Under the pieces are notes generated by a model that had not been told where the DNA came from, searched no databases, and saw nothing but the letters and a program-made list of their open reading frames with translations. From Haloprofundus halobius (GTDB lineage Archaea > Halobacteriota > Halobacteria > Halobacteriales > Haloferacaceae), in NCBI RefSeq assembly GCF_020097835.1, contig NZ_CP083666.1, forward strand, positions 3,038,001 through 3,102,000: a stretch of DNA of 64,000 nt, read 5' to 3'. This document shows, piece after piece, positions 1-52,988 of this stretch (within the stretch, counting starts at the first letter, position 1; each line of letters starts with the position of its first letter). Position numbers and translations under genes: made by a program.

Positions 1-941
1 ACGAGGACTACATCGCAGAGCCGGTCAAAGAACGTGAGGTCTTCGAGGAGTTCAATGGGACCTTGTTTTTAGATTCTGGAGGATTCAAATTCCTCGGTGG
101 ATACGAACTCGACGGCAGCAATTTCGAAGTCGAGATTGATCAAGCGAAAATCTTCGAGATTCAACAGCGGATGGGTGGCGATATCATCGTCAACTTAGAC
201 CGCCCAATCGCACCGGACGACGACTACGAAACCAGGGTCGAGAAGGCCCGACGGACCGCAGAGAACGTCGTTGAATTTCTCAATCTCTCAGAAGGGACGA
301 TGAGTGCGCGCTTCTTGACGCTCCATGGGTACAACTACTCCATGCTGGACACCTTTCTCGGGGAAATCGACGATATAGTCGGTGCTTCGCGAGTACACGA
401 CGAGTTCGATGGTGTGGCGTTGGGTAGCCTCGTTCCGCTCAAGGATAACAAGGGTCGCCTCATAGACGCGATTCAGGACTGCCGGTCCATACTGAAGGAC
501 TGGGGGTTCGACGACTTGCCGCTTCACGTACTGGGAATTTCGTCGAGTGCGATCCCCCTCTTAGCAGCGGTTGGCGCGGACTCTTTCGACTCCTCGTCGT
601 ACCTTCACTCTGCAATCAACGGAAAGTACAATACCTCTTTGACAGGGTCGAAATCGATTGACGAAGTCGATTTTAGCAAGTGCAACTGTCCAGTCTGCTC
701 TAACGAGGTACTGGTGAGTCGAATGAAGGGTAATGCCGAATACCGAAAAGACGAACTCGGACCAGTAGCGATGCATAATCTCATCGTCCAAAAACGCGAG
801 GTGGCCTATATCAGGGACTGCATCCGCTCACCGGGAACAGACGACCTCATCGAATATCTCGAATCGACACTCGGACAGAACAAATCAATGCGGCTGTTTG
901 CACACCGCGTTGTAAACGAATCGCTCGGCGGGTACTTCTAA
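1..941 (+). CDS. tRNA-guanine transglycosylase-like (DpdA/TGT family) enzyme, 5'-truncated
   Basis: Seen: the frame is open from base 3, so the gene starts left of the window; 312 residues are visible. Numbering from base 63, there is a D-S-G-G-F motif at residues 4-8 (the base-side Asp of TGTs), I-V-N-L-D at 42-46, G-V-A-L-G at 117-121, G-A-D-S-F-D at 171-176 with the expected nucleophile D176 followed by a TGT-like N-G motif, and a C-x-C-x2-C-x25-H zinc site (C207, C209, C212, H238). Family knowledge: TGT enzymes swap a guanine for a 7-deazaguanine; DpdA paralogues do this in DNA, and TGT-like Cap10 proteins occur in type IV CBASS. The usual archaeal tRNA enzyme has PUA-type C-terminal domains, absent here. 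The stop is one base before the GHKL ATPase start, so they share a transcript. Inference: a DNA or nucleotide modification enzyme of a defence locus. Family sure, substrate unknown. Confidence 0.82.
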   Translation, partial: EDYIAEPVKEREVFEEFNGTLFLDSGGFKFLGGYELDGSNFEVEIDQAKIFEIQQRMGGDIIVNLDRPIAPDDDYETRVEKARRTAENVVEFLNLSEGTMSARFLTLHGYNYSMLDTFLGEIDDIVGASRVHDEFDGVALGSLVPLKDNKGRLIDAIQDCRSILKDWGFDDLPLHVLGISSSAIPLLAAVGADSFDSSSYLHSAINGKYNTSLTGSKSIDEVDFSKCNCPVCSNEVLVSRMKGNAEYRKDELGPVAMHNLIVQKREVAYIRDCIRSPGTDDLIEYLESTLGQNKSMRLFAHRVVNESLGGYF

Positions 942-942
942 C

Positions 943-2520
943 ATGCAAGAAACGACTCCAGAGAAACAGACGAGGAAACGACCGAAAGTCAACGAGGTAA
1001 ACGAGTTTTTGGAGATTGCGAGCGACTTCGAGGACCCGCTCGAAGTTATTCGTGAAGCGCTTTCGAACAGTTACGACGCTGGGGCGACGGAGGTAGAAAT
1101 CAGTATTAAGAGCCGTGCTCAGGAGTCAGAAATCATCATCGAGGATAACGGTCGAGGTATGTCTGAGTCGGATCTCGAATCGTTCTTCGACCTCGGTAAT
1201 TCAACGAAGAGTGATCCTGAGCACGACTCAATTGGATACAAGGGGCACGGAACAAAGATTCTCTACAAGAGTAACCAAATCATCGTTGACACGGCCCAAG
1301 AGGGGAAAAACCTCCACGCTGTGATGGACAAGCCGTGGGACACACTCAACAATCGAGAGCTCCCTGAGTACGAGGTTACTGAGTCAACGACGCGTCCGGG
1401 TAATGATGGAACGCGCATCAAGGTAACCGGCTTTAAATCTGGTCGCGGCTTCGCGCCTGAGTCACTCACATACAACAAAATCGAACACTACCTCAAGTGG
1501 AAGACGTTAGCTGGGTCGACGAAGTATCACTTCCATCCAGAGCAGTTCCGTGATCTCGAAATCACCGTAAGGCTTGACGACGGGATCGACGACTCGCGAG
1601 AGAGGTTAGTCACGAACAACAAGCTGGAGTTCCCGGAGGAACAGCTTGATCCCGGTGAGGAGCCGTTCCCGGAAGCTCGGATGTGTAAGCATTACGGGCC
1701 GAAAACCCTCCAGATAGAGGCGGATAACGGTGAGACGACTGAATTGGAGGTCGTCGGAATGGTTGGGGGTAAGGATGCTAGAGATGAGCTTCCGACGTAC
1801 GGTCGACACTCCGCGCAATTCGGGATCTGGCTCGCTAAAGATCACATCAAGGTTGAACGGCTCAACGAGGCAATATCGCACGATAACGAGTTTATTCACT
1901 TCCTCTTCATCGCGAACTCCCAAGACATAGAACTCTCGGCGAACCGAGAGAAGATTCGTAACAAGTCGAGCGCCATCTACCAAGCGATCGAAACGGAACT
2001 CAACTACTTCCTGTCGAAGGTTGCCGCCGATCCGTGGTTTAAAGGGTATCTCGAACAGCGACGGGTTGCGGAGTTGAATCGGAAGGCATCGACCCAACAA
2101 AAGTCCGTGGAAGAACGGAAAAAAGCGGTGACTGAACGTGGACGTTTCGAGGCAACGAATCAATCTGAAGTCATCCTCGGTCTAGAACGGTCAAACAGAG
2201 AGGGAGCGAAGCCGACAATCACCGTCGAAGACTTCGACTTGGGTGCGGACGTGAACGCACTCGTCGAACAGAACGGTCGTCTCTACGGGAGTTCAGTGCA
2301 TCTGAAGCTCACTGATCACTTTGAAGAAGACAAACCGCTCGAGAGTGTAGGAAAGATCCTCTGCTGGGAGATCGGCGATCGAGACAAGCTCCGCGAGATC
2401 GAACGTCGCGGGTATCAGAATGGACACGTAGAATTTGACCTCGAGAGCAACCGAATTACGTACGGTACCAAGTCTCGGCACACCATTCACATCGTCGAAG
2501 TTCCCTCACGATTCGACTAA
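943..2520 (+). CDS. GHKL-type (Hsp90/MORC-like) ATPase of the accessory island
   Basis: Seen: 525 residues with a complete Bergerat ATP fold. The N-box helix has E38, N42 and D45; the G1 box D-N-G-R-G is at 68-72; the G2-type lid G-Y-K-G-H-G is at 98-103, with a G-N-S-T-K-S motif before it. The C-terminal half has no recognised domain but carries charged, probably helical segments at about 345-410. Family knowledge: GHKL ATPases (MutL, MORC, Hsp90, gyrase B) dimerise on ATP and act as clamps, and are common sensors or switches in phage defence. No histidine-kinase phosphoacceptor domain is visible. The ATG lies one base after the TGT-like stop codon, so the two are translated together. Codons are more AT-rich than in genes right of 8.8 kb, as expected for acquired DNA. 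Exact role not known. Confidence 0.85.
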   Translation: MQETTPEKQTRKRPKVNEVNEFLEIASDFEDPLEVIREALSNSYDAGATEVEISIKSRAQESEIIIEDNGRGMSESDLESFFDLGNSTKSDPEHDSIGYKGHGTKILYKSNQIIVDTAQEGKNLHAVMDKPWDTLNNRELPEYEVTESTTRPGNDGTRIKVTGFKSGRGFAPESLTYNKIEHYLKWKTLAGSTKYHFHPEQFRDLEITVRLDDGIDDSRERLVTNNKLEFPEEQLDPGEEPFPEARMCKHYGPKTLQIEADNGETTELEVVGMVGGKDARDELPTYGRHSAQFGIWLAKDHIKVERLNEAISHDNEFIHFLFIANSQDIELSANREKIRNKSSAIYQAIETELNYFLSKVAADPWFKGYLEQRRVAELNRKASTQQKSVEERKKAVTERGRFEATNQSEVILGLERSNREGAKPTITVEDFDLGADVNALVEQNGRLYGSSVHLKLTDHFEEDKPLESVGKILCWEIGDRDKLREIERRGYQNGHVEFDLESNRITYGTKSRHTIHIVEVPSRFD

Positions 2521-2598
2521 TTTCGGCGGGGACTAACACCGCGGCTATCCTCTAGGTGAGTTTTCCTGGTCAAACTACTCTAATTATCCCACCAACTG

Positions 2599-2717
2599 GT
2601 ATATAATCGATACATTGTTATACAATGATATGAATATCATACGCGAATGAGTAGGTGTGGCACGCTTCATACCTTATCTGTAGCACGGGTCCTTCCAAAG
2701 GGATTGACGAGGGAGGG
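2599..2717 (+). promoter_or_regulatory. Promoter and operator-like inverted repeats upstream of the helicase gene
   Basis: The 202-base gap after the ATPase gene is AT-rich. It holds a TATA-like stretch at about 2599-2607, then two overlapping inverted repeats: CATTGT-TAT-ACAATG (2613-2627) and ATGATAT-GA-ATATCAT (2625-2640). A purine-rich GGGAGGG Shine-Dalgarno-like site sits at 2711-2717, six bases before the ATG at 2723. A TATA near 2600 would start RNA about 2625-2630, inside the repeats, giving a leader of roughly 95 bases. Inference: a separately regulated second transcription unit, with a repressor site at the start point. Confidence 0.5.
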
Positions 2718-2722
2718 ATCGA

Positions 2723-5257
2723 ATGAATATCGATAAGCTTGCGGACTCCATTGCTGATCAGAAAACTCCGCGCGAGATATTCCAAAAGGAGTGGCTCGGA
2801 GGGATGCCCGAAGCACAGTGGCCCTCGTACATTGATGAGTCAGCGACGTTGGTGATGGAAGGCATAACGATTGGCGACACAAATCTCACGAAGGGAGATT
2901 TTTCAAGTGAGACGGGTGATCTATATCGACGAGGACTGGCACGGACAACCGGAAGACAACGTTCGGAGACGAGCCTCCCTGTTGGAAGCGTATCTGGTCG
3001 TGACCTCGGAATCGTCATGTGGGCGCTCAATGGATTAAAAGAGGATATTGAGTCCTCACGACATACGAACTACACTTCGACGAGCCGAGCGGTGGAGGCT
3101 GTACTGAACAAGGCGATGATTGGGGCAGTCGCCGACCAGAAGTTCGACTATACAGACTTCGAGCGGATTCGTCTTCCGGAAGGAGCAGCCGTAACCGACC
3201 TCATGGCTGAACTCTTCTGTCGTCCGCGGAGCGATGCGTTTGTAGATGCGTTAGTAGAAATCTCAGAAGAGAGTCGACGGTCGGGAGAAAGCCTCCTACA
3301 GCTACTTGAACAACCGAAGATGGTGACCCCACTCTGGGAGCACCAACGAGAGGCACTCGCCGAATGGCTTGACTCCGGCTGTCGAGGATACGTCGACATG
3401 GCGACTGCAACTGGGAAGACGTTCCTCGGCCTTGCAACCATCGCACATCACTTCGGGGACTTACATCCGAATGATACCGATCTCACGCGAAAGAATCTCC
3501 GTCCAGACACAGACGGTGATGCAACCGTGGTCGTCGTCGCACACCGGTCGGTCATCCTCGACCAGTGGAAGCGAGAGTTCGACCGGCATCTCAATATCCC
3601 GAAAGAGGCGTCAGCTAGCGACGGAGAATACACGGCTCGCTATTCGTGGGGAGAGGTGCATTTCTGGACGCCAAATCGGTTGTTAGAAAGAGACGTCCCC
3701 GATGCTGACCTCGTCGTCCTCGACGAGACGCACCACTACGTCGGAGGAAGCGGCTTTGGTGCTCTCTTGGACCAGATGAGTGGTCATTTACTGGCGCTCT
3801 CGGGATCGCTCAACGAGAAGAACAGTAACACACTTGAGCGACGTCAGATACCGAAACTGTTCGAGTTCTCCCTCCGAGACGGCCAGCGTGTCGGGATTAT
3901 CCCCCAGTGTGATTGGCACGTCAGAATTGTCCCGTTCGAAGGCCAATCGACGCTCGCCGAGGTGACAGAGCAGTATCGTACCGGTTATGACCAGTACTCC
4001 GACGGATCAGCAGCGTCAGTTCTCGAAGACGTAGCTGATGCCCAGTTGTCTTTCAATTCGCTCTCTGAGGCACGGTCTGTTACGCAATCTCGATACGGTC
4101 GAGAAGTGAAGGAGCGCGACGACAACTTCCGGAAGTTCTCTGCTGCAACCAAGTCTCGGGGGTTGACAAAGTACAATCTCTCGCCGACGCTCTCTGCGAT
4201 CACGACCATCACGCTAAACCACGTTCACGACCACAAATGCGTAGTCCTCCTCAACTCCGGAGATGAGATTGAAACCGTCGTCTCGGGACTGCGCAGAGAA
4301 CTGGGCGAAAACTTCGACGACCTCGTGATCGACCTCGATAGTTACGATGGTGACCCGCTTGAGGCAATCGAGTCGTTCGACGAGAAGCGGGAGGTGGGTG
4401 TGATTATCGGAACCGCCTCCACACTCGGAGAGGGTGTCGACATCAAAACCGCAGACGTCGGGATCAACCGTTCAAGCGGTCGCCTTAGCCACTCGCTCGT
4501 CCAACGAATTGGTCGAATCCTTAGGAACCCTGATGGCGACAAACGAGCGACCTTTTACCACGTTGTCGGGATTCCTACAGAGGAGGACGCAGTACTCCTC
4601 AAAGAGGACGGACAGGAATTGCTCGACATGGCGAGTCAGCTCGTCACTTGGGGAGAATCGTTCGACGCCCGACCTGGGTTCGAGACGATGGGGGTTGGTG
4701 TCGACGAGTCACTCTACCAACTCGAACAGCACGGAGCGCACGGGATTCTTGAATCGGATTCCTACTCCTGGCCGACGAACGAAAACGCTCGAGAACGACT
4801 TCTCGGCATCTGTGAAGAGATCCGCGGAAGTGAGGAGTCAGTTCTCCTCAAAATGGACCCTCAGCTCACGTCTGGCACACGACCATCGAACAGGACGAAC
4901 TACGTTTCGAGTCACAGTGATTCGAAGATTGAGCTTCCAATGACTCTCTTGAAGGCCGTTTCAGAGCACGTTGAGGGGAACGCCTCTATCGGTCACGATA
5001 GTCGATTCATTGAACAGGCCATTCGAGAAGGACTCGAAGAAATTGAGATTACGAAAATAGGCGACAGTGAATCTGATTCGAACACAGACTTCTTGAGCGC
5101 CGTCGAGATCAACCCAGTACTCTGTTCAGTGCTGCGAGTCGCGCTCGCGTCAACCGGAGTATCGTCCAGCGAGTTCGCTCAGATGGCGGTCAAGAAAGCC
5201 CTCTCCAAACATGTCACTAACAATAAGGGCGCATTCGACGCGAGCACGTTACAATGA
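2723..5257 (+). CDS. DEAD/DEAH-type superfamily 2 helicase
   Basis: Seen: 844 residues. After an N-terminal region of about 200 residues without a recognised domain comes an H-Q-R-E (Q-like) motif near 214, a Walker A variant M-A-T-A-T-G-K-T at 226-233, D-E-T-H (motif II) at 334-337, an S-G-S motif III, a G-E-G-V-D-I motif V, and Q-R-I-G-R-I-L-R (motif VI) at 594-601. This order fits the type III restriction/UvrB-like branch of SF2. Residues about 734-775 resemble a ribbon-helix-helix-like segment. Family knowledge: such helicases translocate on DNA or RNA and drive many defence systems. No nuclease motif is seen in the chain. The start is supported by a strong Shine-Dalgarno-like site. The stop overlaps the next gene start by four bases (ATGA), so translation of the two is coupled. 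Confidence 0.88.
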   Translation: MNIDKLADSIADQKTPREIFQKEWLGGMPEAQWPSYIDESATLVMEGITIGDTNLTKGDFSSETGDLYRRGLARTTGRQRSETSLPVGSVSGRDLGIVMWALNGLKEDIESSRHTNYTSTSRAVEAVLNKAMIGAVADQKFDYTDFERIRLPEGAAVTDLMAELFCRPRSDAFVDALVEISEESRRSGESLLQLLEQPKMVTPLWEHQREALAEWLDSGCRGYVDMATATGKTFLGLATIAHHFGDLHPNDTDLTRKNLRPDTDGDATVVVVAHRSVILDQWKREFDRHLNIPKEASASDGEYTARYSWGEVHFWTPNRLLERDVPDADLVVLDETHHYVGGSGFGALLDQMSGHLLALSGSLNEKNSNTLERRQIPKLFEFSLRDGQRVGIIPQCDWHVRIVPFEGQSTLAEVTEQYRTGYDQYSDGSAASVLEDVADAQLSFNSLSEARSVTQSRYGREVKERDDNFRKFSAATKSRGLTKYNLSPTLSAITTITLNHVHDHKCVVLLNSGDEIETVVSGLRRELGENFDDLVIDLDSYDGDPLEAIESFDEKREVGVIIGTASTLGEGVDIKTADVGINRSSGRLSHSLVQRIGRILRNPDGDKRATFYHVVGIPTEEDAVLLKEDGQELLDMASQLVTWGESFDARPGFETMGVGVDESLYQLEQHGAHGILESDSYSWPTNENARERLLGICEEIRGSEESVLLKMDPQLTSGTRPSNRTNYVSSHSDSKIELPMTLLKAVSEHVEGNASIGHDSRFIEQAIREGLEEIEITKIGDSESDSNTDFLSAVEINPVLCSVLRVALASTGVSSSEFAQMAVKKALSKHVTNNKGAFDASTLQ

Positions 5258-8200
5258 ATTTACGAATCGAAGCCGAAGTTAGTCGGCTTACGCAGTGGAA
5301 CCGCCGGTCGCGATTACTGAAAGCCGGTGTGTTAATGGTGATTGTAGCGATTGTCGGCGCTCTACTCTGGGATTTTGAACAGGCCACGGCTCTCGCACTC
5401 ACCAGTTTTATTTCGTATATTCTGCTCGGACTTCTCATCTCGTTTGGATGGGTAACGTATCGACGGAAACAGGCGGTAGCATCGGTTGAGACTGCGGCAA
5501 AGGAACACTTGGCACAAGAACGAGAGCGTATCGACGACGACCTCAATAAGGGTGCAGTAGAGAGTGCAACGGTCCGCGTTGAATCGCTCGAACAGACGTA
5601 CCAATTTCTCGTAGACGATGTAGAATCAGAGAGGCTCCGAACGGAAGTTGAGTCTTACCTTACAGCTATCGATGAATTACGGACACGGGTTGAGAAGGGG
5701 ACTGCTGAGTGGGAAACGCTATCTAGCTCAATCGAACTTGTCAAGGAAAAACTGGACGCGGCTGAAAATGAGTACGAGGCTGAAAACTTCGATTCAGCAC
5801 TAGAGATATATCGCACACTCGAACCCGCAATAGAGGATCTCTCGTCAGCAACTCTCACAGTTACATCGTCCTCTGGAGACGCCTTACCGCCCGTCGAAAC
5901 GGTATCCTCGAAATATTGGCGTGGCTATTTCCAAACAACGCTGACAGTCGGCTACATTCAAATGCAGGAAGGGGACGAACTCCTGTCCCAGTCGGCTCAA
6001 AACGCGTGTAAGACGTACCAAGAGGCCACGAAAAATGTCGAGCAGGCCGTAGATCTCGCAGAGTCGGAAGACATCACCTACAACGATATTGACTTCCTTG
6101 GCTCGCCGATACCTCAGCCAACACTAACTGACATAGATGGTATTGGGGAACAGCGAGCAGACTCACTACGTGACCACGGCATCGAGTCGCCAGTAGACAT
6201 CGTCGAAGCCAATTCTCTCTCTCATATCCCTCGGATTGGAGAGAAAACAGAGCGACGCCTCCGCCGTTCTGCTGAGTCTCTAGTCGAGAATTTCCTGGAA
6301 GTTCAACACGGGAAGGCACACACGAAGTATTCGAAGCTAAACGACTGGGTCTGCCTTCACGATGAGAGTGTTGGTCTACTGGAAAAGGCTGAGGACGCAG
6401 TTGTCAAAGCGCGCACAAACCTTCTAGACGGAAAAGACGAGGAGACGGGATCTGAGTTACAAAAGGCAGATCAGATTACTGATGAAGTAGAGAGTAAACT
6501 ACGCTCGCTCGTAGAGAACGAGTTTCAAGTGGAACTTTCCACACAAGTCGACGAACTCCACAACCAGTTGACACGTGTAAATCAGTCTATACGACTTCTC
6601 TCTTCGATTACTGCCTGTAACGAGCAGATCGGAATTAGCGAATCAGCGATTCAAGATGGAAATTTCACCTCTGCACTCGACCACGTGAATCGTGGTAAGA
6701 AACACCTCGATGCGGCAAATCAAATCACCACGCAGTTGAGCGAACACGAATGGACTCAACCAGTCGAGCGCCGTAGAGAAAAGCTCGACAGACTGGACAA
6801 TCAGATACACGCTGAACTTGAGACACAGAAAATCGAAAAACGACTCGATGAAGCAGAGCGTGATATCGAGCACGCAATCAATGGCCTCGGTGAGGATACG
6901 ACCGCGGTCGACATTGAAGCTTCAGTTGATCATCTCGAGTCGGCAGTAAGTACCATCAAAACGGTTCAACCCATCGTCGAGAGTGTCGGCGGAGCAGCAC
7001 AAGAACGGTTGGAGTGCTTGGCGAACCAAGCCGAGGAGACCGAAGAGTTAGTTGAGCGGTATCGAAACTCACTAGAATTCGATTCGTTGATTGAATCGGT
7101 CGAAGAGCAGATCAAAGCTGGCGTCGAAGCGAGTAAAGAGGGCTCGTATCAAAGTTCGAGTGGACACTTTGGGCACGCGAAACAAGAGCTAAATGCGGCG
7201 ACTGAACTCGTCGGAAAAGTCGACCGAAGCGATGCTGGTAAACAGGTCAGACAGTTATCTCGCCGTTTGGAAAGCGAGCGCTCCGACGCGCTCCGACGGA
7301 AGCATTTCAGTATTTGTTGGAGCTTGATGGAACGCGCAGAGAAAGCAGTCGCTCGAGCCATTGACCACCTCGAAACCAACGCGTACGATGACGCAGCGAA
7401 GGGGTTCACTGAGGCGATAGAACATCTATCTGACGCCGAACAGTGGGCTCAGAGATCCGACTTAGCAGAACAATGGGAGATCAAGCAACGCCTAGACACA
7501 CTCTGTGAGTACAGGTCGAATGCCGAGTCGTCTCTCGAAACGTATCTAAAGCGCCGCTCGTCGGAGGCTGCCCAGCATCTCGACAGAGCAAATCAACTCA
7601 TCTCGAAGAGCCACCAGCAACTCGATATTGAGGACGCGAGTGCAGCGAACGAGAGCTGGATGACCGCTCGCGACTCGCTGGATACGGCCAAGGAAATAAT
7701 CGGTAATTCGCAGCTGCAAAATGCCGCGAATCTCGAGGAAAGACACCGTGAGACGGAAAGACGTCTCACAGAGTTGCGAAACGCTATCGAACGGTCTGGG
7801 TACGACATTTCCGGAGCAAGCCGTACTAGGCTCGTTGATGAACTCCAAGAACTGGCGGTGACCATCGGAGAATCCCCGCGAGAAGAGTTCGTCGACGCCT
7901 GTGGGAGGTACCCCTCAGACGAGTACGTAGAGATGTTCGGCTCGTGGGAGGATGCACTTCGTGCAGCTAACTTGGAACCGGTCGACTGGGCCTCCAGAAA
8001 TCGACGCAAATACACTCGTGTCGATATCCTTGAGTCGGTCGCCGAACTGACGAGGACATTCGGTCGATACCCGACCAAGGCCGAGATGAACGACCAAGGT
8101 TCAATGTCCGTTTCAACGGTAGAGACTCGGTTTGGGACGTGGGAGAGCGCCCTCGATCTGGCTGAGCGCATTGAGCTTAGTTCGGAGTTGTCGAGAGATG

Positions 8201-8403
8201 ACGCAGTTGCCGAACTCACCGGGATTAGTGGCGTGACAGCGACTGAAGCGTCGATACTCTACGATGCCGGGTTGACCTCGGTTATAGATGTACAGAAAGC
8301 GACGATGGAGAATCTCCTCGCTATTGATGGAATCTCAAAACAAATCGCGTTGCGGATGAAAGCCGACGTTGGTGAGCTAACTACGGAGTCCCAAGTGCGT
8401 TAG
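5254..8403 (+). CDS. Large membrane-anchored coiled-coil protein with HhH domains and HNH-associated repeats
   Basis: Seen: 1049 residues. Two hydrophobic segments (about 22-39 and 44-67) anchor the N-terminus. A very long acidic helical region follows, rich in heptad-like E, L, A and R patterns. It is interrupted at about 288-346 by a double helix-hairpin-helix (I-D-G-I-G and I-P-R-I-G hairpins). Near the C-terminus are two copies (about 858-908 and 920-972) of a repeat ending in F-G-S-W / F-G-T-W-E-x-A-L, which matches the homing-endonuclease-associated repeat, then a final HhH pair at about 988-1040. No catalytic nuclease motif is visible. Family knowledge: HhH and these repeats bind DNA. 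Inference: it tethers DNA or the helicase complex to the membrane, or senses invading DNA there. The architecture is not one I recognise from a named system. Confidence 0.8.
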   Translation: MNLRIEAEVSRLTQWNRRSRLLKAGVLMVIVAIVGALLWDFEQATALALTSFISYILLGLLISFGWVTYRRKQAVASVETAAKEHLAQERERIDDDLNKGAVESATVRVESLEQTYQFLVDDVESERLRTEVESYLTAIDELRTRVEKGTAEWETLSSSIELVKEKLDAAENEYEAENFDSALEIYRTLEPAIEDLSSATLTVTSSSGDALPPVETVSSKYWRGYFQTTLTVGYIQMQEGDELLSQSAQNACKTYQEATKNVEQAVDLAESEDITYNDIDFLGSPIPQPTLTDIDGIGEQRADSLRDHGIESPVDIVEANSLSHIPRIGEKTERRLRRSAESLVENFLEVQHGKAHTKYSKLNDWVCLHDESVGLLEKAEDAVVKARTNLLDGKDEETGSELQKADQITDEVESKLRSLVENEFQVELSTQVDELHNQLTRVNQSIRLLSSITACNEQIGISESAIQDGNFTSALDHVNRGKKHLDAANQITTQLSEHEWTQPVERRREKLDRLDNQIHAELETQKIEKRLDEAERDIEHAINGLGEDTTAVDIEASVDHLESAVSTIKTVQPIVESVGGAAQERLECLANQAEETEELVERYRNSLEFDSLIESVEEQIKAGVEASKEGSYQSSSGHFGHAKQELNAATELVGKVDRSDAGKQVRQLSRRLESERSDALRRKHFSICWSLMERAEKAVARAIDHLETNAYDDAAKGFTEAIEHLSDAEQWAQRSDLAEQWEIKQRLDTLCEYRSNAESSLETYLKRRSSEAAQHLDRANQLISKSHQQLDIEDASAANESWMTARDSLDTAKEIIGNSQLQNAANLEERHRETERRLTELRNAIERSGYDISGASRTRLVDELQELAVTIGESPREEFVDACGRYPSDEYVEMFGSWEDALRAANLEPVDWASRNRRKYTRVDILESVAELTRTFGRYPTKAEMNDQGSMSVSTVETRFGTWESALDLAERIELSSELSRDDAVAELTGISGVTATEASILYDAGLTSVIDVQKATMENLLAIDGISKQIALRMKADVGELTTESQVR

Positions 8404-8694
8404 CTTCCACATAGGAAAGCGCTCTAAAATTCGGGCAAATGCATATTTTCAATGCTTTGTATATCGATGTCTCTGGACTATCCCTGATTCATCCTTCTCC
8501 ACGGAGATCTCTACTGAAGTGGCGATTCTCCTCACCGCTAGAATTAAGTCAGACTACGTACCATTTGATTCCAGCGAACCGCAAGACGGCAGTGCCGCCG
8601 CCATACTACATAACGAACTCCAGAGGGTGGAGGGAGGTGTTCTTTATAAGCACCTCTCCGCCGTCTGTTGATCCGGAAGCGCTATGAATTAGAA
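8404..8694. other. Gene-free stretch between island and tRNA-Arg
   Basis: No convincing gene is seen. The short open frames here have compositions unlike haloarchaeal proteins. The only structure is an inverted repeat, GAGGTG (8634-8639) and CACCTC (8651-8656), separated by an AT-rich spacer that reads like a TATA element. It may be a transcription end for the island or an unrelated hairpin. The composition stays AT-richer than the chromosome to the right, so the stretch probably belongs to the island. Confidence 0.4.
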
Positions 8695-8767
8695 CGGACC
8701 CGACGGGATTTGAACCCGCGACATCTTGGTCCGGAACCAAGCACTCTGTCCACTGAGCTACGGGCCC
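8695..8767 (-). tRNA. tRNA-Arg (anticodon CCG)
   Basis: The minus strand folds into a full cloverleaf of 73 bases: acceptor stem GGGCCCG with CGGGTCC, anticodon stem CTTGG/CCAAG around the loop TTCCGGA (anticodon CCG), T-loop TTCAAAT, discriminator G. No CCA is encoded and no intron is seen. The 3' end points left into the AT-rich island, the usual arrangement when an integrase has used a tRNA 3' end as its attachment site. Confidence 0.95.
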
Positions 8768-28760: not shown

Positions 28761-29315
28761 TTATCCGTGTTTCTCGCGGTGTGCTCTCTTCTGTTCGGTG
28801 TACGTCTCGTCCGCCTCGACCGTGTTCCACCACACTTCGTAGATCAGCGCCGCCTCGCGCTTGTCGTCGTCGGCCCAGTACTGCGCGTTGCACTCCTTAC
28901 CGTGGTCGTACTTCTTGCCGCCAGAGTAGCGCGCGTAGCGCATCGCCCGAGTGGAGCCCATCTGGAGATACTTGCGGGACATATCCATCCCGACGAAGTC
29001 GTCGCGGTAGTCGAGGACCCGACTGTAGATGGCTTCGCTGGATTCGTCGGCCGATGCGCGGTCCGCGTCGCTCCACAGCGGCAGCAGTTCGTCCTTGTAC
29101 GGTTGGACCTTGAAAACGCCCTCCTCCCCGCGGCCGACGCGGTACCGCTCGGGGTGGTCTCGAACGTTCGTCTCGTACTTGAGCCCGTAGTCCGTCGATT
29201 TCGCTTCGCCGTTCGACTCCGCTGGTTCGTCCGTCGACTCCGTGCTCCTCGCCCCGTCCGCCTCCGACTCGTCGTCCGTCCGACTTCCGCCCGACGTCGA
29301 GTCCATACCAGCCAA
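28761..29315 (-). CDS. DUF4385-family protein
   Basis: Seen: 184 residues. After an acidic N-terminus of about 45 residues, the domain reads N-V-R-D-H-P-E-R-Y-R-V-G-R-G-E-E-G-V-F, V-Q-P-Y-K-D-E-L-L-P-L-W, F-V-G-M-D-M-S-R-K-Y-L-Q-M-G, T-R-A-M-R-Y-A-R-Y and K-K-Y-D: the conserved blocks of DUF4385, a family shared with bacteria and eukaryotes. Its many invariant charged residues suggest an enzyme or nucleic acid binder, but no function is known to me. Confidence 0.85.
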   Translation of the reverse strand: MAGMDSTSGGSRTDDESEADGARSTESTDEPAESNGEAKSTDYGLKYETNVRDHPERYRVGRGEEGVFKVQPYKDELLPLWSDADRASADESSEAIYSRVLDYRDDFVGMDMSRKYLQMGSTRAMRYARYSGGKKYDHGKECNAQYWADDDKREAALIYEVWWNTVEADETYTEQKRAHREKHG

Positions 29316-29405
29316 ACGCGGTGCTTGCGTACTACTTCCCCGACGAAACTCAACTCACGGGAGACGAATCGGCGGCTACAAACGGTCCCGCGGGAGTAGA
29401 GGGGT

Positions 29406-29855
29406 ATGGACGATTCGCAGCCGTTTCCGACGGAGGCAGCGGCGATGCTCCAGCAGTTCATCGAACAGGAGCACGGCTATCTCTCGTGGCTGAACACGCG
29501 CGTCGACAGCATCGAGCGCGGGCGCGTCGTGATGTCGATCCCGTACGACGAGAAACTCACCAACACCACGTCGCCGCCGACGATTCACGGGGGCGTCGCC
29601 GCGACGCTCATCGACACCGTCGGCGGGGTCGCACAGCGGTCGACGTTCGACGATCCGACGCAGGGCGGCGTCGCGACCGTGAATCTCAACGTGAACTACC
29701 TGCGCCGCGCCTCCGGCGACCTGACGGCGACGGCGGACGTCGTCCGGGCCGGCGGGAGCATCGGCGTCAGCGAGATCACCGTCGAGAGCCCCACGCCCGA
29801 TGGCGGAACCGAGGCCGTCGCTACCGGACAGGCAGCCTACCGGCTGTTCCGTTGA
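29406..29855 (+). CDS. PaaI-type hotdog thioesterase
   Basis: Seen: 149 residues. I-H-G-G-V-A-A-T-L-I-D-T-V-G-G-V-A carries the H-G-G and acidic residue of PaaI/YdiI-like hotdog enzymes; V-N-L-N-V-N-Y-L-R-R-A is the second strand motif. Role: hydrolysis of acyl-CoA thioesters, often phenylacetyl- or other aryl-CoA, in the cytoplasm. The stop is directly next to the stop of the convergent isochorismatase gene. Confidence 0.9.
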   Translation: MDDSQPFPTEAAAMLQQFIEQEHGYLSWLNTRVDSIERGRVVMSIPYDEKLTNTTSPPTIHGGVAATLIDTVGGVAQRSTFDDPTQGGVATVNLNVNYLRRASGDLTATADVVRAGGSIGVSEITVESPTPDGGTEAVATGQAAYRLFR

Positions 29856-30425
29856 CTACTCGAACGTCACCTCGTCGAGCGTCGCCGTCTCGCCGAACAG
29901 CCAGTCGGCGTGCTCGACGGCGTACTCCTTGTGGCCCTCCTCGATGTGGCCGATCGCGTCGGTGACGAGCACCGGCCGGAAGTCGCGGAGTCCGGCGCTT
30001 CCGGCGGTGTGGAGGACGCAGACGTTTGCCAGCGTCCCGCAGATGAGCAGGTCGTCGACGCCGTGGGCGTTCAACCACCCTTCCAGCTCCGTCTGGTAGA
30101 ACGCGTCGTAGGTGTGTTTCGTGACGACGTGGTCGTCCTCGCGAACGTCGAGTTCGTCGACGAGTTCGGTCTCCCAACTTCCTTCGACGACGTGTTCACC
30201 CCAGCGCTCGAACTCGTCGTAGTAGTGGTTCCCCTCGAACTGTTCGGGCGGGTGAACGTCTCGGGTGAAGACGACGCGCGCGCCGGCGTCGTGCGCGCGG
30301 CCGACGAGCGTCGACACCGGTTCGATGGCGTCCTCGCTCGCGGGGGCGTAGAGGCTCCCGTCGGGGTGGCAGAATCCGTTCTGCATGTCGACGACGACGA
30401 CGACGGTCCGTTTCGGGTCGTACAT
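29856..30425 (-). CDS. Isochorismatase/nicotinamidase-family cysteine hydrolase
   Basis: Seen: 189 residues. Catalytic triad D13 (V-V-D-M-Q-N-G-F), K103 (V-V-T-K-H-T-Y-D-A-F) and C136 (L-A-N-V-C-V-L-H-T-A), with the cis-peptide segment before Cys. H58 in D-V-H-P-P may bind metal as in nicotinamidases. Family role: hydrolysis of amide or vinyl-ether bonds; nicotinamidase is the likeliest guess, and a nicotinate phosphoribosyltransferase lies 5 kb away at 35316, but that is context only. Confidence 0.88.
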   Translation of the reverse strand: MYDPKRTVVVVVDMQNGFCHPDGSLYAPASEDAIEPVSTLVGRAHDAGARVVFTRDVHPPEQFEGNHYYDEFERWGEHVVEGSWETELVDELDVREDDHVVTKHTYDAFYQTELEGWLNAHGVDDLLICGTLANVCVLHTAGSAGLRDFRPVLVTDAIGHIEEGHKEYAVEHADWLFGETATLDEVTFE

Positions 30426-30604
30426 ACGTTTCACTCCGCTCTCGGCGAGTAAATCGTTTGGCGAGCGACCCGCCGTCGAGACTGGGGTCGGTTCTCGGTG
30501 AAGTCGGCGGCGGTCCTCGGTGAGGCCGGTGTTGGCTCCCGGTGACGCCGCAGGCGGTGACGCCCGAGGCGACCGTTTTTCACGTTTGACTCCGTTGGGG
30601 ACGT

Positions 30605-32161
30605 ATGCGACGTACACTCGCAGTTGCGGTCGCGCTGCTGGTGGTGCTGTCGGGGTGCGGCGGCTTCGTCGGGTCCGAAGACCCGTCGTCGACGGCCGAG
30701 AGTCCCGACACGGCGACCGACACCACCTCTACTTCCTCGGACTCGACCGACGACGCTAACTCGTCCGGCGACGCCCCGCCGGCCGGCGACGCACCCAATT
30801 CCGGCGACGGAATGGCCGAGAACCCCCCGGACCCCGAGTCGGACAGACTCGGCTGGGAGGGCGGCTACTGGTACAACGAGACGCTCGACGTCGACCAGTC
30901 CGACGGTCTCAACGAGTCGGAGATGGAGGCGGTCGTCAACCGCTCGATGGCGCGCGTCGAACACATCCGCGGCCTCGAGTTCGAAGGGACGGTCCCCGTC
31001 GAGGTCATCTCCCGCGAGGAGTTCCGAAACGAGTCGACCGGGAGCGGCGGCGAGTACCCGCAGCAGCGCCGCGCCTTCGACAACGCGAAGTTCGAGGCGC
31101 TGTTCATGATCAACGAGTCGACCGACTCGGTCGCCGTCCAGAACACGAACACCGGAAGCTCCGTCGGCGGCTACTACAGCCCCACCGACGAGCGAATCGT
31201 CATCGTCAGCGAGAACACCACCTCGCCGAAGCTGAACGAGGTGACGCTCTCACAGGAGCTGTTCCACGCGCTACAGGACCAGCAGTTCGACCTCGCGAGC
31301 TACAACCAGTCGACGCGTGAGCAGCACAACGCCGTCGACGGCATCGTCGAGGGCGACGGCAACTACGTCGACTGGCTGTACGAGCAGCGCTGTAACGCCG
31401 AGTGGAACTGCCTCGAAGACAGCGCCTCCGCCGGTGGCGGCGGCGAACTCGCCAACTACGGTCCGTACCTCATCCAGTACCAGCCGTACAGCGACGGGCC
31501 GGCATTCGTCCGGCAGCTCCGCGAACGCGGCGGCTGGGAGGCAGTCAACGAGGCGTACGAGAACCCGCCCGCGAGCACCGAACAGACCATCCACCCCGAC
31601 CGCTACCCCGACGACCGACCGGTCGACCCCACGGTGACCGACCGGACGAGCGGGACGTGGCAGCAACTCGAACCCGAGGGGCGGCCGAACTACGGCGAAC
31701 TGGGCGAGGCGGGCGTGAACGCGATGCTCGTCTACCCACTGTACGAGACGGAGGGAGAGACGCAGATCATCCCCGCCCGGCAGTGGTACAACCTCAACGA
31801 GAGCGGGGAGGTGAACCAGTTCGACCCGTTCAACTACGACCACCCCTACACGGACGGGTTCCGCGGTGATCGCTTCGTCGCCTACCAGAACGACGCGGGC
31901 GAGACCGGCTACGTCTGGAAACTCGCCTGGGACAACGCCTCGCAGGCCGACGAGTTCCTTGACGGCTACGAGCAACTGCTGGAGTTCCGCAGCGCCGAGG
32001 AAGTCGACGACGCGTCCGGACCGGGGACCGTCTACCGCATCGCCGAAGACGACAACGGATTCGCCGACGCCTTCCGTGTGGTACAGGACGGCGACACCGT
32101 CTACATCGTCAACGCACCGACCGTAGACCAACTGTCGAACGTCCACGCGACGCAGTCGTAG
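30605..32161 (+). CDS. Hvo_1808-type surface lipoprotein, degenerate zincin copy
   Basis: Seen: 518 residues. Signal peptide and lipobox L-S-G-C, then a long S/T/D-rich linker (to about 95). The domain starts L-G-W-E-G-G-Y-W-Y. At the metalloprotease helix it reads S-Q-E-L-F-H-A-L-Q-D-Q, with Q217 where the paired gene at 32329 has His, so the H-E-x2-H site is broken (E218 and H221 kept). Later motifs (G-P-Y-L-I-Q-Y; a W-K-L-A-W-D near the end) match the neighbour throughout. Inference: a non-catalytic duplicate on the cell surface. Confidence 0.85.
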   Translation: MRRTLAVAVALLVVLSGCGGFVGSEDPSSTAESPDTATDTTSTSSDSTDDANSSGDAPPAGDAPNSGDGMAENPPDPESDRLGWEGGYWYNETLDVDQSDGLNESEMEAVVNRSMARVEHIRGLEFEGTVPVEVISREEFRNESTGSGGEYPQQRRAFDNAKFEALFMINESTDSVAVQNTNTGSSVGGYYSPTDERIVIVSENTTSPKLNEVTLSQELFHALQDQQFDLASYNQSTREQHNAVDGIVEGDGNYVDWLYEQRCNAEWNCLEDSASAGGGGELANYGPYLIQYQPYSDGPAFVRQLRERGGWEAVNEAYENPPASTEQTIHPDRYPDDRPVDPTVTDRTSGTWQQLEPEGRPNYGELGEAGVNAMLVYPLYETEGETQIIPARQWYNLNESGEVNQFDPFNYDHPYTDGFRGDRFVAYQNDAGETGYVWKLAWDNASQADEFLDGYEQLLEFRSAEEVDDASGPGTVYRIAEDDNGFADAFRVVQDGDTVYIVNAPTVDQLSNVHATQS

Positions 32162-33872: not shown

Positions 33873-34499
33873 CTACGAGATGAATTCCTTGATAATCCGG
33901 CCTTCAGCTCGATGGAGGACACCACTAGCCGCCGATTGATTGACTCCCAATGTTTCTGCAAGTTCGACTAGCGTACAGCCGCGAGGACTGTCGTAATAAC
34001 CCCGTTCAACCGCTTCAGCGATGACCTCCCGCTGGCGTTCGGTCAGAAGCCCGTTCGAGTCGTATGATTGGGTTAACGACAGTATCTCGTACGGAATGTG
34101 AGCCGTCGCTAACTCGGTAGTTAACTCCGACAACTGCTCCTGTGAGGTAGTTTGTTCACCGGATGCCCACCCGTCTCGGATGATGATCGGAAATCGCGGA
34201 AGGATACCAATCGAACGCCTCGCCTCATACGTTGACGGCATCGGAAACACCAACTGGACCAGTACCATCTCGTCGTCGGAATGGAGCACTTCGTACGAGC
34301 GCACCTCCGGTGCGTCGTCGAACCGGCGAACGATGGCGTCCCTGTCCGATGTCGTTACTTCGATCAGTTCGAGCACGCCATCGTCTACGGGCTGGCTCGT
34401 CAGGATCTTGAACTCGGCGTCCGAGAAGTCGGTCGAAACACCAGCTAGCCAGTTGTCGCTGTCTGCCCCGATCTCGACCTTCAGGCGTACACGGACCAT
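33873..34499 (-). CDS. HTH-10 (Bat-type) transcription regulator
   Basis: Seen: 208 residues. The N-terminal 150 residues form the sensor region common to this group; the C-terminus (T-E-R-Q-R-E-V-I-A-E-A-V-E-R-G-Y-Y, C-T-L-V-E-L-A-E-T-L-G-V-N-Q-S-A-A-S) is the HTH-10 domain. Family role: haloarchaeal regulators such as Bat. It is divergent from a DoxX-family membrane gene, and the region between carries operator-like repeats. Likely controls that gene and itself. It is AT-richer than its neighbours, so the pair may be acquired. Confidence 0.88.
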   Translation of the reverse strand: MVRVRLKVEIGADSDNWLAGVSTDFSDAEFKILTSQPVDDGVLELIEVTTSDRDAIVRRFDDAPEVRSYEVLHSDDEMVLVQLVFPMPSTYEARRSIGILPRFPIIIRDGWASGEQTTSQEQLSELTTELATAHIPYEILSLTQSYDSNGLLTERQREVIAEAVERGYYDSPRGCTLVELAETLGVNQSAASGVLHRAEGRIIKEFIS

Positions 34500-34519
34500 A
34501 CCACAGGAATTGGCTGGCG

Positions 34520-34567
34520 AGTGGCTTAACAGACTTCCTAGTGGCTTAAAGAGGTGAATATATTCAC
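34520..34567. promoter_or_regulatory. Operator-like direct repeats and palindrome
   Basis: AGTGGCTTAA occurs at 34520-34529 and again at 34540-34549, exactly 20 bases apart (about two helical turns), so two protein units could sit on one face. It is followed by the perfect palindrome GTGAATATATTCAC (34554-34567). The first repeat lies 21-30 bases before the HTH-10 ATG on the minus strand, where its TATA should be, so binding there would give autorepression. Confidence 0.55.
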
Positions 34568-34676
34568 GGAGAAATCCGTAGTCTCAACGAGCGTAGCAGA
34601 CCCGTGCCTCTCGTCGGAGACAGGGACAGAACGTTATGAATGAACACCCGTCCGGATCGCGTAAGAATAGTAGACT

Positions 34677-35045
34677 ATGAGCACAGTTGAAACGGCCATC
34701 CCCCTCGTGCAAGGGCTGCTCGGACTCATCATGCTGGCTGCGGGCACCGCGAAGCTAATCGGCATTGACCTCGTGGTAGAGGATTTCGATCGATACGGCT
34801 ATCCAGAGTGGTTCCGATTCGTTACTGGTGGCATCGAGGCGTTTGGGGGTCTCGGCTTGCTCGTCGGTCTCGTGTTCGCGCCGATTCTCGCTGTTCTCGG
34901 CGGACTGTTAATCGTCGCCACGATGGCCGGGGCCATCCTGACACATCTCTTCCGGGTTGACGATCCGCTCTGGAGATTTGTCGGGCCATCGATCTATCTC
35001 ACCGTCGGACTCCTCGTGACGAGATTCCACCTGCTGTCGTTCTAG
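34677..35045 (+). CDS. DoxX-family membrane protein
   Basis: Seen: 122 residues with four predicted membrane helices (about 7-25, 45-62, 65-85, 98-116) in the DoxX/DoxD arrangement, including G-L-I-M-L-A-A-G-T-A-K-L and G-G-I-E-A-F-G-G-L-G-L-L-V-G-L. Family role: small integral proteins, some linked to thiosulfate:quinone oxidoreductase or redox stress. It is the likely target of the divergent HTH-10 regulator. Confidence 0.85.
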   Translation: MSTVETAIPLVQGLLGLIMLAAGTAKLIGIDLVVEDFDRYGYPEWFRFVTGGIEAFGGLGLLVGLVFAPILAVLGGLLIVATMAGAILTHLFRVDDPLWRFVGPSIYLTVGLLVTRFHLLSF

Positions 35046-51933: not shown

Positions 51934-52037
51934 ACCCGCTCTTACATCCGGTCGACAATGGGCGTGACGGGTCGTCGGAGAAACGACTTACGCTCGACTC
52001 GTTGGGTTGGCGTTCGCCAAAGGGAACAACGGAAACA

Positions 52038-52786
52038 GCCAACAAGCCCTTGTTAAACTTCCTAGTAAGTGATACGCTCCGGCGGTCGTGCTGAATACCG
52101 CGCGCGAATCTTGCACAGTCAAAGCTAGAAAACACACCATCTCCTGAGTTGCCACGACTGCCCAACCTAGGGAAGATGGATATACGGCACAGGTACTCGC
52201 CGTAGCGCGTGAGTCTACACGCGCCACGATCAGTAAACTGAGTGAGAGCAATTTTTATCTCGGCTACTGACTTGGGGGCGGTATGGAATCGCTAGATGAT
52301 GTCTTTTCGCTATTCAGCACGGAACGGCGACGGTTCGCATTGTACCATCTGAAGAATGCGGAAAGGCCGGTATCGATCGACGAACTCGCAGAGAAAATTT
52401 ATGAGTGGGAAGAGAACGGGTCGTGTGACACTATCCCCGACGACGAGCTACAACAGGTGATTCTCTCGCTGGAACATTCTCATCTTCCAAAAATTGGGGA
52501 TACCACACACGTCGAATACGATCGCACGAACGAGCAAGTCCGTATCTCGGGACTGTCAGCAGAGGCTGACGTAATCCTCTCTGTTAGCGAGGCTATCGAA
52601 CAACCATCAAAAACCAACGATTTTGTCGTCTCCCGGCTCGGAAAATTCCTGTGAGATATACCCCTACTATCGGTGACGAGTCTTTCAGCGGGTGATAAAT
52701 TGGATGATACTGTGTGGAATATACCCTCTCTATTCAGCACGTGGTTCTTATCAACGGTTGAGGACTTTGACTGAACCGCCAACAAG
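52038..52786. mobile_element. AT-rich insert with inverted-repeat ends (possible IS remnant)
   Basis: CGTGCTGAATA (52087-52097) and TATTCAGCACG (52731-52741) form perfect 11-base inverted repeats around an AT-rich segment that holds a regulator gene but no transposase. Short direct repeats GCCAACAAG lie outside both ends (52038-52046 and 52778-52786). The inner 13 bases of the right end (CCTCTCTATTCAG) recur inverted at 33748-33760, near another AT-rich insert. The same 11-mer also lies inside the gene (52311-52321), which weakens the case. Low-confidence remnant of a transposon or MITE. Confidence 0.35.
52283..52654 (+). CDS. Winged-helix regulator (DUF7344-like)
   Basis: Seen: 123 residues. 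S-L-F-S-T-E-R-R-R-F-A-L-Y-H-L at the start, V-S-I-D-E-L-A-E-K-I-Y near 31-41, and V-I-L-S-L-E-H-S-H-L-P-K near 60-71 match the DUF7344 haloarchaeal winged HTH. A TATA-like TTTTTATCT lies about 26 bases before the ATG, so the message is leaderless. Low GC. Targets unknown. Confidence 0.8.
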   Translation: MESLDDVFSLFSTERRRFALYHLKNAERPVSIDELAEKIYEWEENGSCDTIPDDELQQVILSLEHSHLPKIGDTTHVEYDRTNEQVRISGLSAEADVILSVSEAIEQPSKTNDFVVSRLGKFL

Positions 52787-52885
52787 TATCTCTACCGCGA
52801 GCGACCGAAGGGAGCGAGCGGGCCGAGGAGTGAACGAAGGGGGACGAAGCCGCCCGAAGTGAACGACGAGTGCTGTTGGTGCAAG

Positions 52886-52980
52886 AGAAGACGCTTCGCG
52901 TCTTCTAAGCCTTCGCGGCTTCGCCGCGAAGACAGCTTTTGCCGAGCGAGAGCGCTTTGCGCTCTCGTGCAGCGCAAAAG
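52886..52980. terminator. Three consecutive perfect hairpins downstream of the nitrite/sulfite reductase
   Basis: Three stems of nine pairs with three-base loops: AGAAGACGC-TTC (52886-52906), CTTCGCGGC-TTC (52911-52931) and CGAGAGCGC-TTT (52947-52967). The third sits inside an outer stem, CTTTTGC (52936-52942) with GCAAAAG (52974-52980), 9 bases from the reductase stop. They are likely a strong transcription end or RNA-stability element for the reductase message. I see no gene among them. Confidence 0.6.
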
Positions 52981-52988
52981 GTGCGAGC

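What the first reader, a model, noticed from the sequence alone, without database searches (positions are those of the whole stretch)
1..8403. Candidate undescribed modification/defence system: TGT-like enzyme, GHKL ATPase, SF2 helicase, membrane HhH coiled-coil protein
Four packed genes on one strand combine a base-exchange enzyme (D-S-G-G-F, G-A-D-S-F-D and complete C-x-C-x2-C-x25-H), a GHKL switch ATPase, a translocating helicase and a membrane-anchored DNA-binding protein. Known 7-deazaguanine DNA systems (Dpd) pair DpdA with helicases, and type IV CBASS carries a TGT-like protein. I do not recall the GHKL ATPase or the 1049-residue membrane protein in either. AT-rich composition and a tRNA 3' end at the border add to the case. 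The role is inferred; upstream genes are outside the window.
Basis: partly seen in the sequence, partly recalled or inferred. Interest (0 to 1): 0.9.

Follow-up and report, generated by a model that had tools for sequence, protein, structure and literature searches.

The report
Archaeal 7-deazaguanine DNA-marking defence island (BRIGADE-type)
The genes at the start of this window are one end of a large inserted island in a salt-loving archaeon that very probably swaps some DNA guanines for a modified base and attacks DNA lacking the mark; the overall system type was predicted in a 2025 preprint, but its marking enzymes carry an unusual, never-separated ATPase partner that the held text of that preprint does not mention.

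Summary
The four genes are real, but they are only the right-hand end of a larger cluster. It lies in a low-GC island of about 71 kb, bounded by tRNA-Arg and a 16-bp copy of that tRNA's 3' end. Upstream lie a DpdC-like DUF6884 gene, a second TGT fused to an archaeosine-synthase (ArcS) domain, DpdH-, DpdJ- and DpdK-like genes, and a second YprA/Druantia-type helicase. This matches BRIGADE type I, a haloarchaeal Dpd-like system predicted in a 2025 preprint, so "undescribed" is not supported, but "modification/defence" is.

What is added here: in 391 Halobacteria genomes, the operon DUF6884–TGT–GHKL ATPase is inseparable. All three occur together, adjacent and co-oriented, in the same 42 genomes, and no other genome has the intact TGT or GHKL. 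DndB/DpdB was not detected in the 13 of these genomes tested. The GHKL ATPase probably replaces DpdB. The restriction part is exchangeable: a DpdH/YprA module (23/42) or a GmrSD-family nuclease (8/42, two of these with Pbe genes), never both. The PbeA-like helicase and the 1049-aa membrane protein are accessory. DNA as substrate, and the identity of the base, are inferred. No wet data exist here.

The parts
1..941 (+). DpdA-like tRNA-guanine-transglycosylase-family base-exchange enzyme; last 312 of 414 aa (the gene starts at -303, outside the window)
   Evidence: own clade; 42/391 genomes
943..2520 (+). GHKL ATPase, 525 aa, with GHKL plus transducer-like domains as in Topo VI-B, MORC, Hsp90 and MutL
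   Evidence: same 42 genomes, immediately downstream of the TGT gene in all
2723..5257 (+). PbeA/DpdE-like SF2 helicase, 844 aa; accessory
   Evidence: PADLOC PbeA 2.3e-22; NCBIfam dnd_restrict 3.6e-15, DpdE 9.6e-8; over 300 bits in 7/42 loci
5254..8403 (+). Protein of 1049 aa with an N-terminal hydrophobic stretch (predicted membrane anchor), coiled coil, HNH_repeat and helix-hairpin-helix domains; accessory
   Evidence: partial matches in 16 other loci
8692..8767 (-). tRNA-Arg (8695-8767) and attachment-like 16-bp repeat GAACGGACCCGACGGG (8692-8707, second copy at -62616), right border of the island

Best explanation
This is a BRIGADE type I (Dpd-like) modification-restriction island of a haloarchaeon. 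Proposed working: (1) preQ0 comes from the housekeeping queD/queC pathway; (2) the TGT-family enzyme (DpdA role) exchanges chosen guanines in DNA for preQ0, with the adjacent GHKL ATPase acting as the ATP-driven DNA clamp or loader in place of bacterial DpdB; (3) the DUF6884 protein (DpdC role) and the second TGT fused to an ArcS domain convert or insert further, giving dADG and possibly archaeosine (dG+); (4) the restriction part (YprA/Druantia-like helicase, DpdJ-like helicase, DpdK-like PLD nuclease, DpdH-like ATPase and neighbours) translocates on and cleaves or blocks DNA lacking the mark. Shown: gene content, catalytic motifs, exact co-occurrence and order, distinct clades, island borders. 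Inferred: DNA as substrate, base identity, the GHKL role, restriction.
For: Operon DUF6884-TGT-GHKL: TGT and GHKL in the same 42 of 391 genomes, adjacent and co-oriented in 42/42, and no other genome holds the intact pair or either alone; DUF6884 directly upstream in 42/42. DSGG and GHKL motifs in 42/42. DUF6884 is the dpdC domain (PMC11888242; PF03883 and DUF6884 hits; DpdC profile 1e-6), so the order C-A-ATPase mirrors bacterial dpdC-A-B. No DndB/DpdB family in the 13 genomes tested. DpdH, DpdJ and DpdK relatives, in an order matching the canonical cluster (relatives). The second TGT holds the TGT Asp residues and PCx3KPYx2Sx2H (30 of 33 copies). queC/D/E lie within about 21 kb of the cluster in 15-16/42 loci from 11 genera. 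Housekeeping tgtA, arcS and queC are elsewhere in this genome. A complete version sits on a Haladaptatus plasmid.
Against: No DNA-nucleoside data. Matches to NCBIfam DpdA, H, J and K are all below curated cut-offs. The TGT is a clade apart from canonical DpdA, so DNA specificity rests on context. The DpdG match is weak and DpdI is positional only. In at least two genomes the neighbouring queC is the only full-length QueC, so its nearness could reflect a shared insertion site as well as function. 5/42 genomes lack the second TGT, so it is not essential.
Confidence: 0.78

Rival explanations
1. The TGT/GHKL module acts on RNA (tRNA or mRNA): an extra archaeosine-type tRNA modification set that happens to sit in a defence island.
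For: The nearest solved structure is archaeosine tRNA-TGT (1IQ8, 1.4e-28). The second TGT carries the tRNA-enzyme ArcS domain.
Against: Housekeeping tgtA and arcS are present separately. The module is patchy (42/391), island- and plasmid-borne, paired with DpdC-, DpdH-, DpdJ- and DpdK-like or GmrSD/Pbe restriction genes. Absence of a PUA domain is not informative, because this genome's own tgtA also gives no PUA hit.
Confidence: 0.1
2. The TGT adds a deazaguanine to proteins or acts in signalling, as the TGT-like Cap10 of type IV CBASS, with GHKL as regulator.
For: The profile matches Cap10 weakly (9ntn, 5.1e-4).
Against: That match is 24 orders of magnitude weaker than archaeosine TGT. No CBASS family appears among the PADLOC hits of the neighbours scanned apart from a weak TGT-model hit to this protein itself, and no QueC homologue lies within the cluster here.
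Confidence: 0.04
3. The modification module and the restriction genes are separate systems that only share a defence island.
For: The DpdH/YprA module is present in 23/42 loci and absent in others; the partner module varies.
Against: The partner is replaced by another restriction cassette rather than simply missing in 8 cases, with no overlap of the two kinds. In six genomes a GmrSD-family gene directly follows GHKL on the same strand.
Confidence: 0.12

Closest known systems
BRIGADE type I (Bell et al., bioRxiv 2025, PMC12458937)
   Same: Halophilic archaea only; 7-deazaguanine cluster; PLD nuclease; two YprA-type helicases, one Druantia/ARMADA-like and one of the Dpd branch.
   Different: The held text does not mention GHKL or TGT; its supplement could not be read. 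The same modification operon here also occurs with GmrSD/Pbe instead of YprA helicases.
Bacterial Dpd (dpdA-K), e.g. Enterobacter cloacae pPOL9A
   Same: DpdA-type TGT, DpdC-type DUF6884, DpdH-, DpdJ- and DpdK-like genes and their order.
   Different: DpdB not found and replaced in position by a GHKL ATPase; TGT of a separate clade; extra TGT-ArcS fusion; no clear DpdD or DpdF; one more Druantia-like helicase.
PbeABCD phosphorothioation-linked cassette (PMC6459918)
   Same: The PbeA-like helicase in the window; true PbeA/PbeC beside the modification operon in G128, G134, G149 and G366.
   Different: No dndC in the ten genomes tested, including G128 and G134; the paired mark would be a 7-deazaguanine, not phosphorothioate.
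BREX-related capture (BRC) systems with TGT (PMC12839542)
   Same: TGT in a defence operon, some in archaea.
   Different: Those are defined by HerA/FtsK, PglZ and a BrxC-like DUF6079 protein; no such family was among the matches of the cluster proteins scanned.
Halovirus preQ0/G+ pathway (HVTV-1, Druskaviridae; PMC6884629, PMC8651126)
   Same: 7-deazaguanine bases in DNA of haloarchaeal replicons.
   Different: Viral self-protection; no match to this TGT or the second TGT in 50,697 phage records.

Membership tests
BRIGADE type I | Two YprA-family helicases, one ARMADA/Druantia-like and one of the Dpd branch | tested here: met
   1577 aa: DruE3 1.7e-41 over DpdJ 1.3e-23; 1356 aa: DpdJ 3.6e-47 over DruE1 2.8e-15
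BRIGADE type I | PLD or PD-(D/E)xK nuclease in the neighbourhood | tested here: met
   PLD DpdK-like gene next to the DpdJ-like gene
BRIGADE type I | Predicted 7-deazaguanine cluster | tested here: met
   DUF6884, TGT and TGT-ArcS genes
BRIGADE type I | Found in halophilic archaea | tested here: met
   All named chromosomal relatives are Halobacteria; close plasmid hits are Haladaptatus and Natrinema
BRIGADE type I | BrxA-like helical insertion in the ARMADA-like helicase | not tested
Bacterial Dpd | DpdA equivalog | tested here: not met
   NCBIfam DpdA 25.6 bits, cut-off 200; separate clade from four canonical DpdA
Bacterial Dpd | DpdB (DndB/DGQHR family) | tested here: not met
   PF14072 absent from 13 carrier genomes; no phmmer hit to canonical DpdB in 42 loci
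Bacterial Dpd | DpdC (DUF6884/YaaA superfamily) | tested here: met
   weak PADLOC DpdC 0.0018
Bacterial Dpd | DpdH, DpdJ and DpdK homologues | tested here: met
   homology; all below the curated equivalog cut-offs
Bacterial Dpd | 7-deazaguanine in DNA | not testable with these tools
   needs mass spectrometry
PbeABCD | PbeA-C with DndCDEA | tested here: not met
   Only a PbeA-like helicase at this locus; no dndC in this genome
Housekeeping archaeosine TGT | Orthology to tgtA | tested here: not met
   separate tgtA at C1:184842; about 29% identity to other tgtA; separate clade

The most novel reading that the evidence does not exclude
The operon DUF6884-TGT-GHKL is a self-contained, exchangeable archaeal DNA-marking module in which a MORC/Topo VI-B-like GHKL clamp does the job of DpdB. 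With the TGT-ArcS fusion it would put archaeosine (dG+) into the cell's own chromosome, and the same mark is read by at least two unrelated restriction machineries (YprA/Dpd-like, and GmrSD with or without Pbe).
Probability: 0.35. Interest if true: 0.82.

Novelty: new member of a known kind. Interest (0 to 1): 0.6.

Why it matters
In the papers searched, 7-deazaguanine DNA marks are described for bacteria and viruses; archaeal hosts appear only as predictions. Here is a frequent (about 11% of sampled Halobacteria genomes), precisely delimited operon that makes the prediction testable in lab-grown haloarchaea. It also points to the ATPase that probably replaces DpdB, and to a marking module that changes its restriction partner. 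That bears on the open suggestion in PMC6459918 that Pbe can pair with marks other than phosphorothioate.

Tried and rejected
Housekeeping archaeosine enzyme: rejected. "Four genes as a unit": rejected; the PbeA-like and 1049-aa genes are accessory. Canonical Dpd: rejected for lack of DpdB and separate TGT clade. Viral origin of the TGT: no phage match, one remote viral-contig match at 22% identity. Identity of the about 308-aa gene: no family; no DpdG or DpdI similarity; the AlphaFold model was useless (mean pLDDT 38.6), so no fold search was made. DpdI for the 225-aa gene: no sequence support. Key papers on bacterial Dpd (PMC10966956, PMC4801273) and the BRIGADE supplement were not available. 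A structure search listed Topo VI-B, SMCHD1, MORC, Hsp90, GyrB and MutL at Z 14-16.5 for GHKL; these are close together, so no closer relative is claimed.
Full report
Observation. The four ORFs, their motifs, the low GC and the tRNA at the border are as described. The TGT gene is longer than seen: it starts 304 bases upstream of the window. Window position p corresponds to genome contig C1 position 3,038,000 + p; negative numbers below are upstream of the window and could not be entered in the parts list.

The whole island (window coordinates, upstream parts). DUF6884/DpdC-like, 179 aa, -843..-304 (+). HNH_repeat/HhH protein, 752 aa, -3566..-1308 (-). Second TGT fused to an ArcS-type domain, 683 aa, -5685..-3634 (-). 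Coiled-coil protein, 225 aa, -6407..-5730 (+), in the DpdI position. DpdH-like ATPase, 978 aa, -9333..-6397 (+). Protein of 275 aa, -10157..-9330 (+), in the DpdG position. Unknown protein of about 308 aa, about -11101..-10154 (+). YprA/Druantia-type helicase, 1577 aa, -15816..-11083 (+). UPF1-like helicase, 1477 aa, -20319..-15886 (+). DpdJ-like helicase, 1356 aa, -25545..-21475 (-). DpdK-like PLD nuclease, about 150 aa, about -25966..-25508 (-). Sources. Further upstream are AddAB-like helicase-nuclease genes (assigned by eye). A 16-bp direct repeat of the tRNA-Arg 3' end occurs at 8692 and at -62616, where GC also changes. This gives an integrated element of about 71 kb. It was not tested for an integrase.

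What the enzymes are. The TGT keeps the two catalytic Asp residues and the zinc ligands in 13 relatives. Its nearest solved relative is archaeosine TGT. In a maximum-likelihood tree, the TGT, the TGT-ArcS fusion, housekeeping tgtA and canonical DpdA are four separate groups with strong support; long branches make their mutual order unsure. The second TGT joins a TGT domain with both Asp to a DUF5591 domain with PCx3KPYx2Sx2H, which I know as the ArcS signature (own knowledge; motif seen). The GHKL protein keeps the N-box Glu/Asn and both glycine boxes; its model (mean pLDDT 74.9) gives GHKL plus transducer, like Topo VI-B, MORC and Hsp90. The DUF6884 protein has an invariant CSxxK and matches DpdC; GATOR-GC equates DUF6884 with dpdC (PMC11888242).

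Co-occurrence. In 391 genomes of the class, the TGT profile finds 42 genomes and the GHKL profile the same 42, with gaps of 2-28 bases between matches and equal strand in all. One further genome has only GHKL fragments and one only the second TGT. DUF6884 lies directly upstream of the TGT gene, overlapping or within 4 bases, in 42/42. The second TGT is in 37/42 genomes, within the fetched flanks in 33. No DndB/DpdB family member was found in 13 carriers. The order DUF6884-TGT-GHKL thus parallels dpdC-A-B with GHKL in DpdB's place. That GHKL does DpdB's job is inference.

Restriction partners. The DpdH/275-aa/225-aa module occurs in 21-23/42 loci and a strong GmrSD-family hit in 8/42; none has both. 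In six of these (G107, G163, G238, G338, G342, G401) the GmrSD gene is the next gene after GHKL on the same strand; five of the six lack the second TGT. PbeA and PbeC are near the operon in G128, G134, G149 and G366. dndC was absent from the ten genomes tested, which include G128 and G134 but not G149 or G366. Eleven loci have neither module within reach. PbeA-like hits over 300 bits occur in 7/42, and partial matches to the 1049-aa protein in 16 other loci, so these two window genes are accessory.

Precursor supply. This genome has queC and queD elsewhere. queC, queD and queE lie within about 2-21 kb of the cluster in 15-16/42 loci from 11 genera and four families; four also carry a YhhQ-type transporter gene, identified by Pfam in G088. 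A simple binomial gives about 2e-15, but related genomes are not independent. In G128 and G134 this is the only full-length QueC, so it may be the housekeeping locus serving as neighbour.

Literature. Dpd islands are described in eight bacterial phyla (PMC11888242); 7-deazaguanine DNA is described in phages and haloviruses (PMC6884629, PMC8651126). BRIGADE, predicted in September 2025 (PMC12458937), is restricted to halophilic archaea and defined by a 7-deazaguanine cluster, a PLD nuclease and two YprA helicases; type I has one ARMADA-like and one Dpd-branch helicase. This locus meets those features. Hence "new member of a known kind". GHKL and TGT are not mentioned in the held text of that preprint; its supplement was not readable, so priority for the invariant operon is not claimed.

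Limits. All functions are inferred from sequence. The genome sample is one per species and incomplete.

Noticed in passing
L131:8934-12942 (Haloferax alexandrinus plasmid pBNX82-4): A different archaeal Dpd variant: a 964-aa DpdA-DUF6884 fusion above the NCBIfam DpdA cut-off (279.7 vs 200 bits), followed by a second TGT and a BREX-type ATPase; seven other haloarchaeal plasmids carry relatives.
   Followed up: partly
L129 (Haladaptatus sp. YSMS36 plasmid unnamed2): A complete plasmid-borne copy of the system with a second TGT-ArcS fusion, i.e. a third TGT (28767-30731), suggesting mobility.
   Followed up: partly
G163:C1:2726941-2734376 and G238, G338, G342, G401: A compact operon in five genomes: a 310-aa unknown, a second small DUF6884-like gene (149 aa, called in four of the five), DUF6884, TGT, GHKL and a GmrSD-family gene.
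   Followed up: partly
G009:C1:479323, G219:C2:944350, G372:C10:22292; G172:C3:176619-177489: Single in-frame stops in the second-TGT match of three genomes and a broken GHKL remnant in one: possibly decaying copies.
   Followed up: no
genome C1:3005003-3012020, about 33-26 kb upstream of the window: AddB- and AddA-like helicase-nuclease genes inside the same low-GC island, not seen as a pair in the other clusters compared.
   Followed up: no
window 34001-35000 and 52001-53000: Two other local GC dips (0.566 and 0.527 against about 0.66) that may be small inserts.
   Followed up: no
L137:14989-18963 (Paenibacillus plasmid pART37): A bacterial Dpd cluster that also has a second TGT gene near dpdA, so paired TGTs are not unique to archaea.
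   Followed up: no
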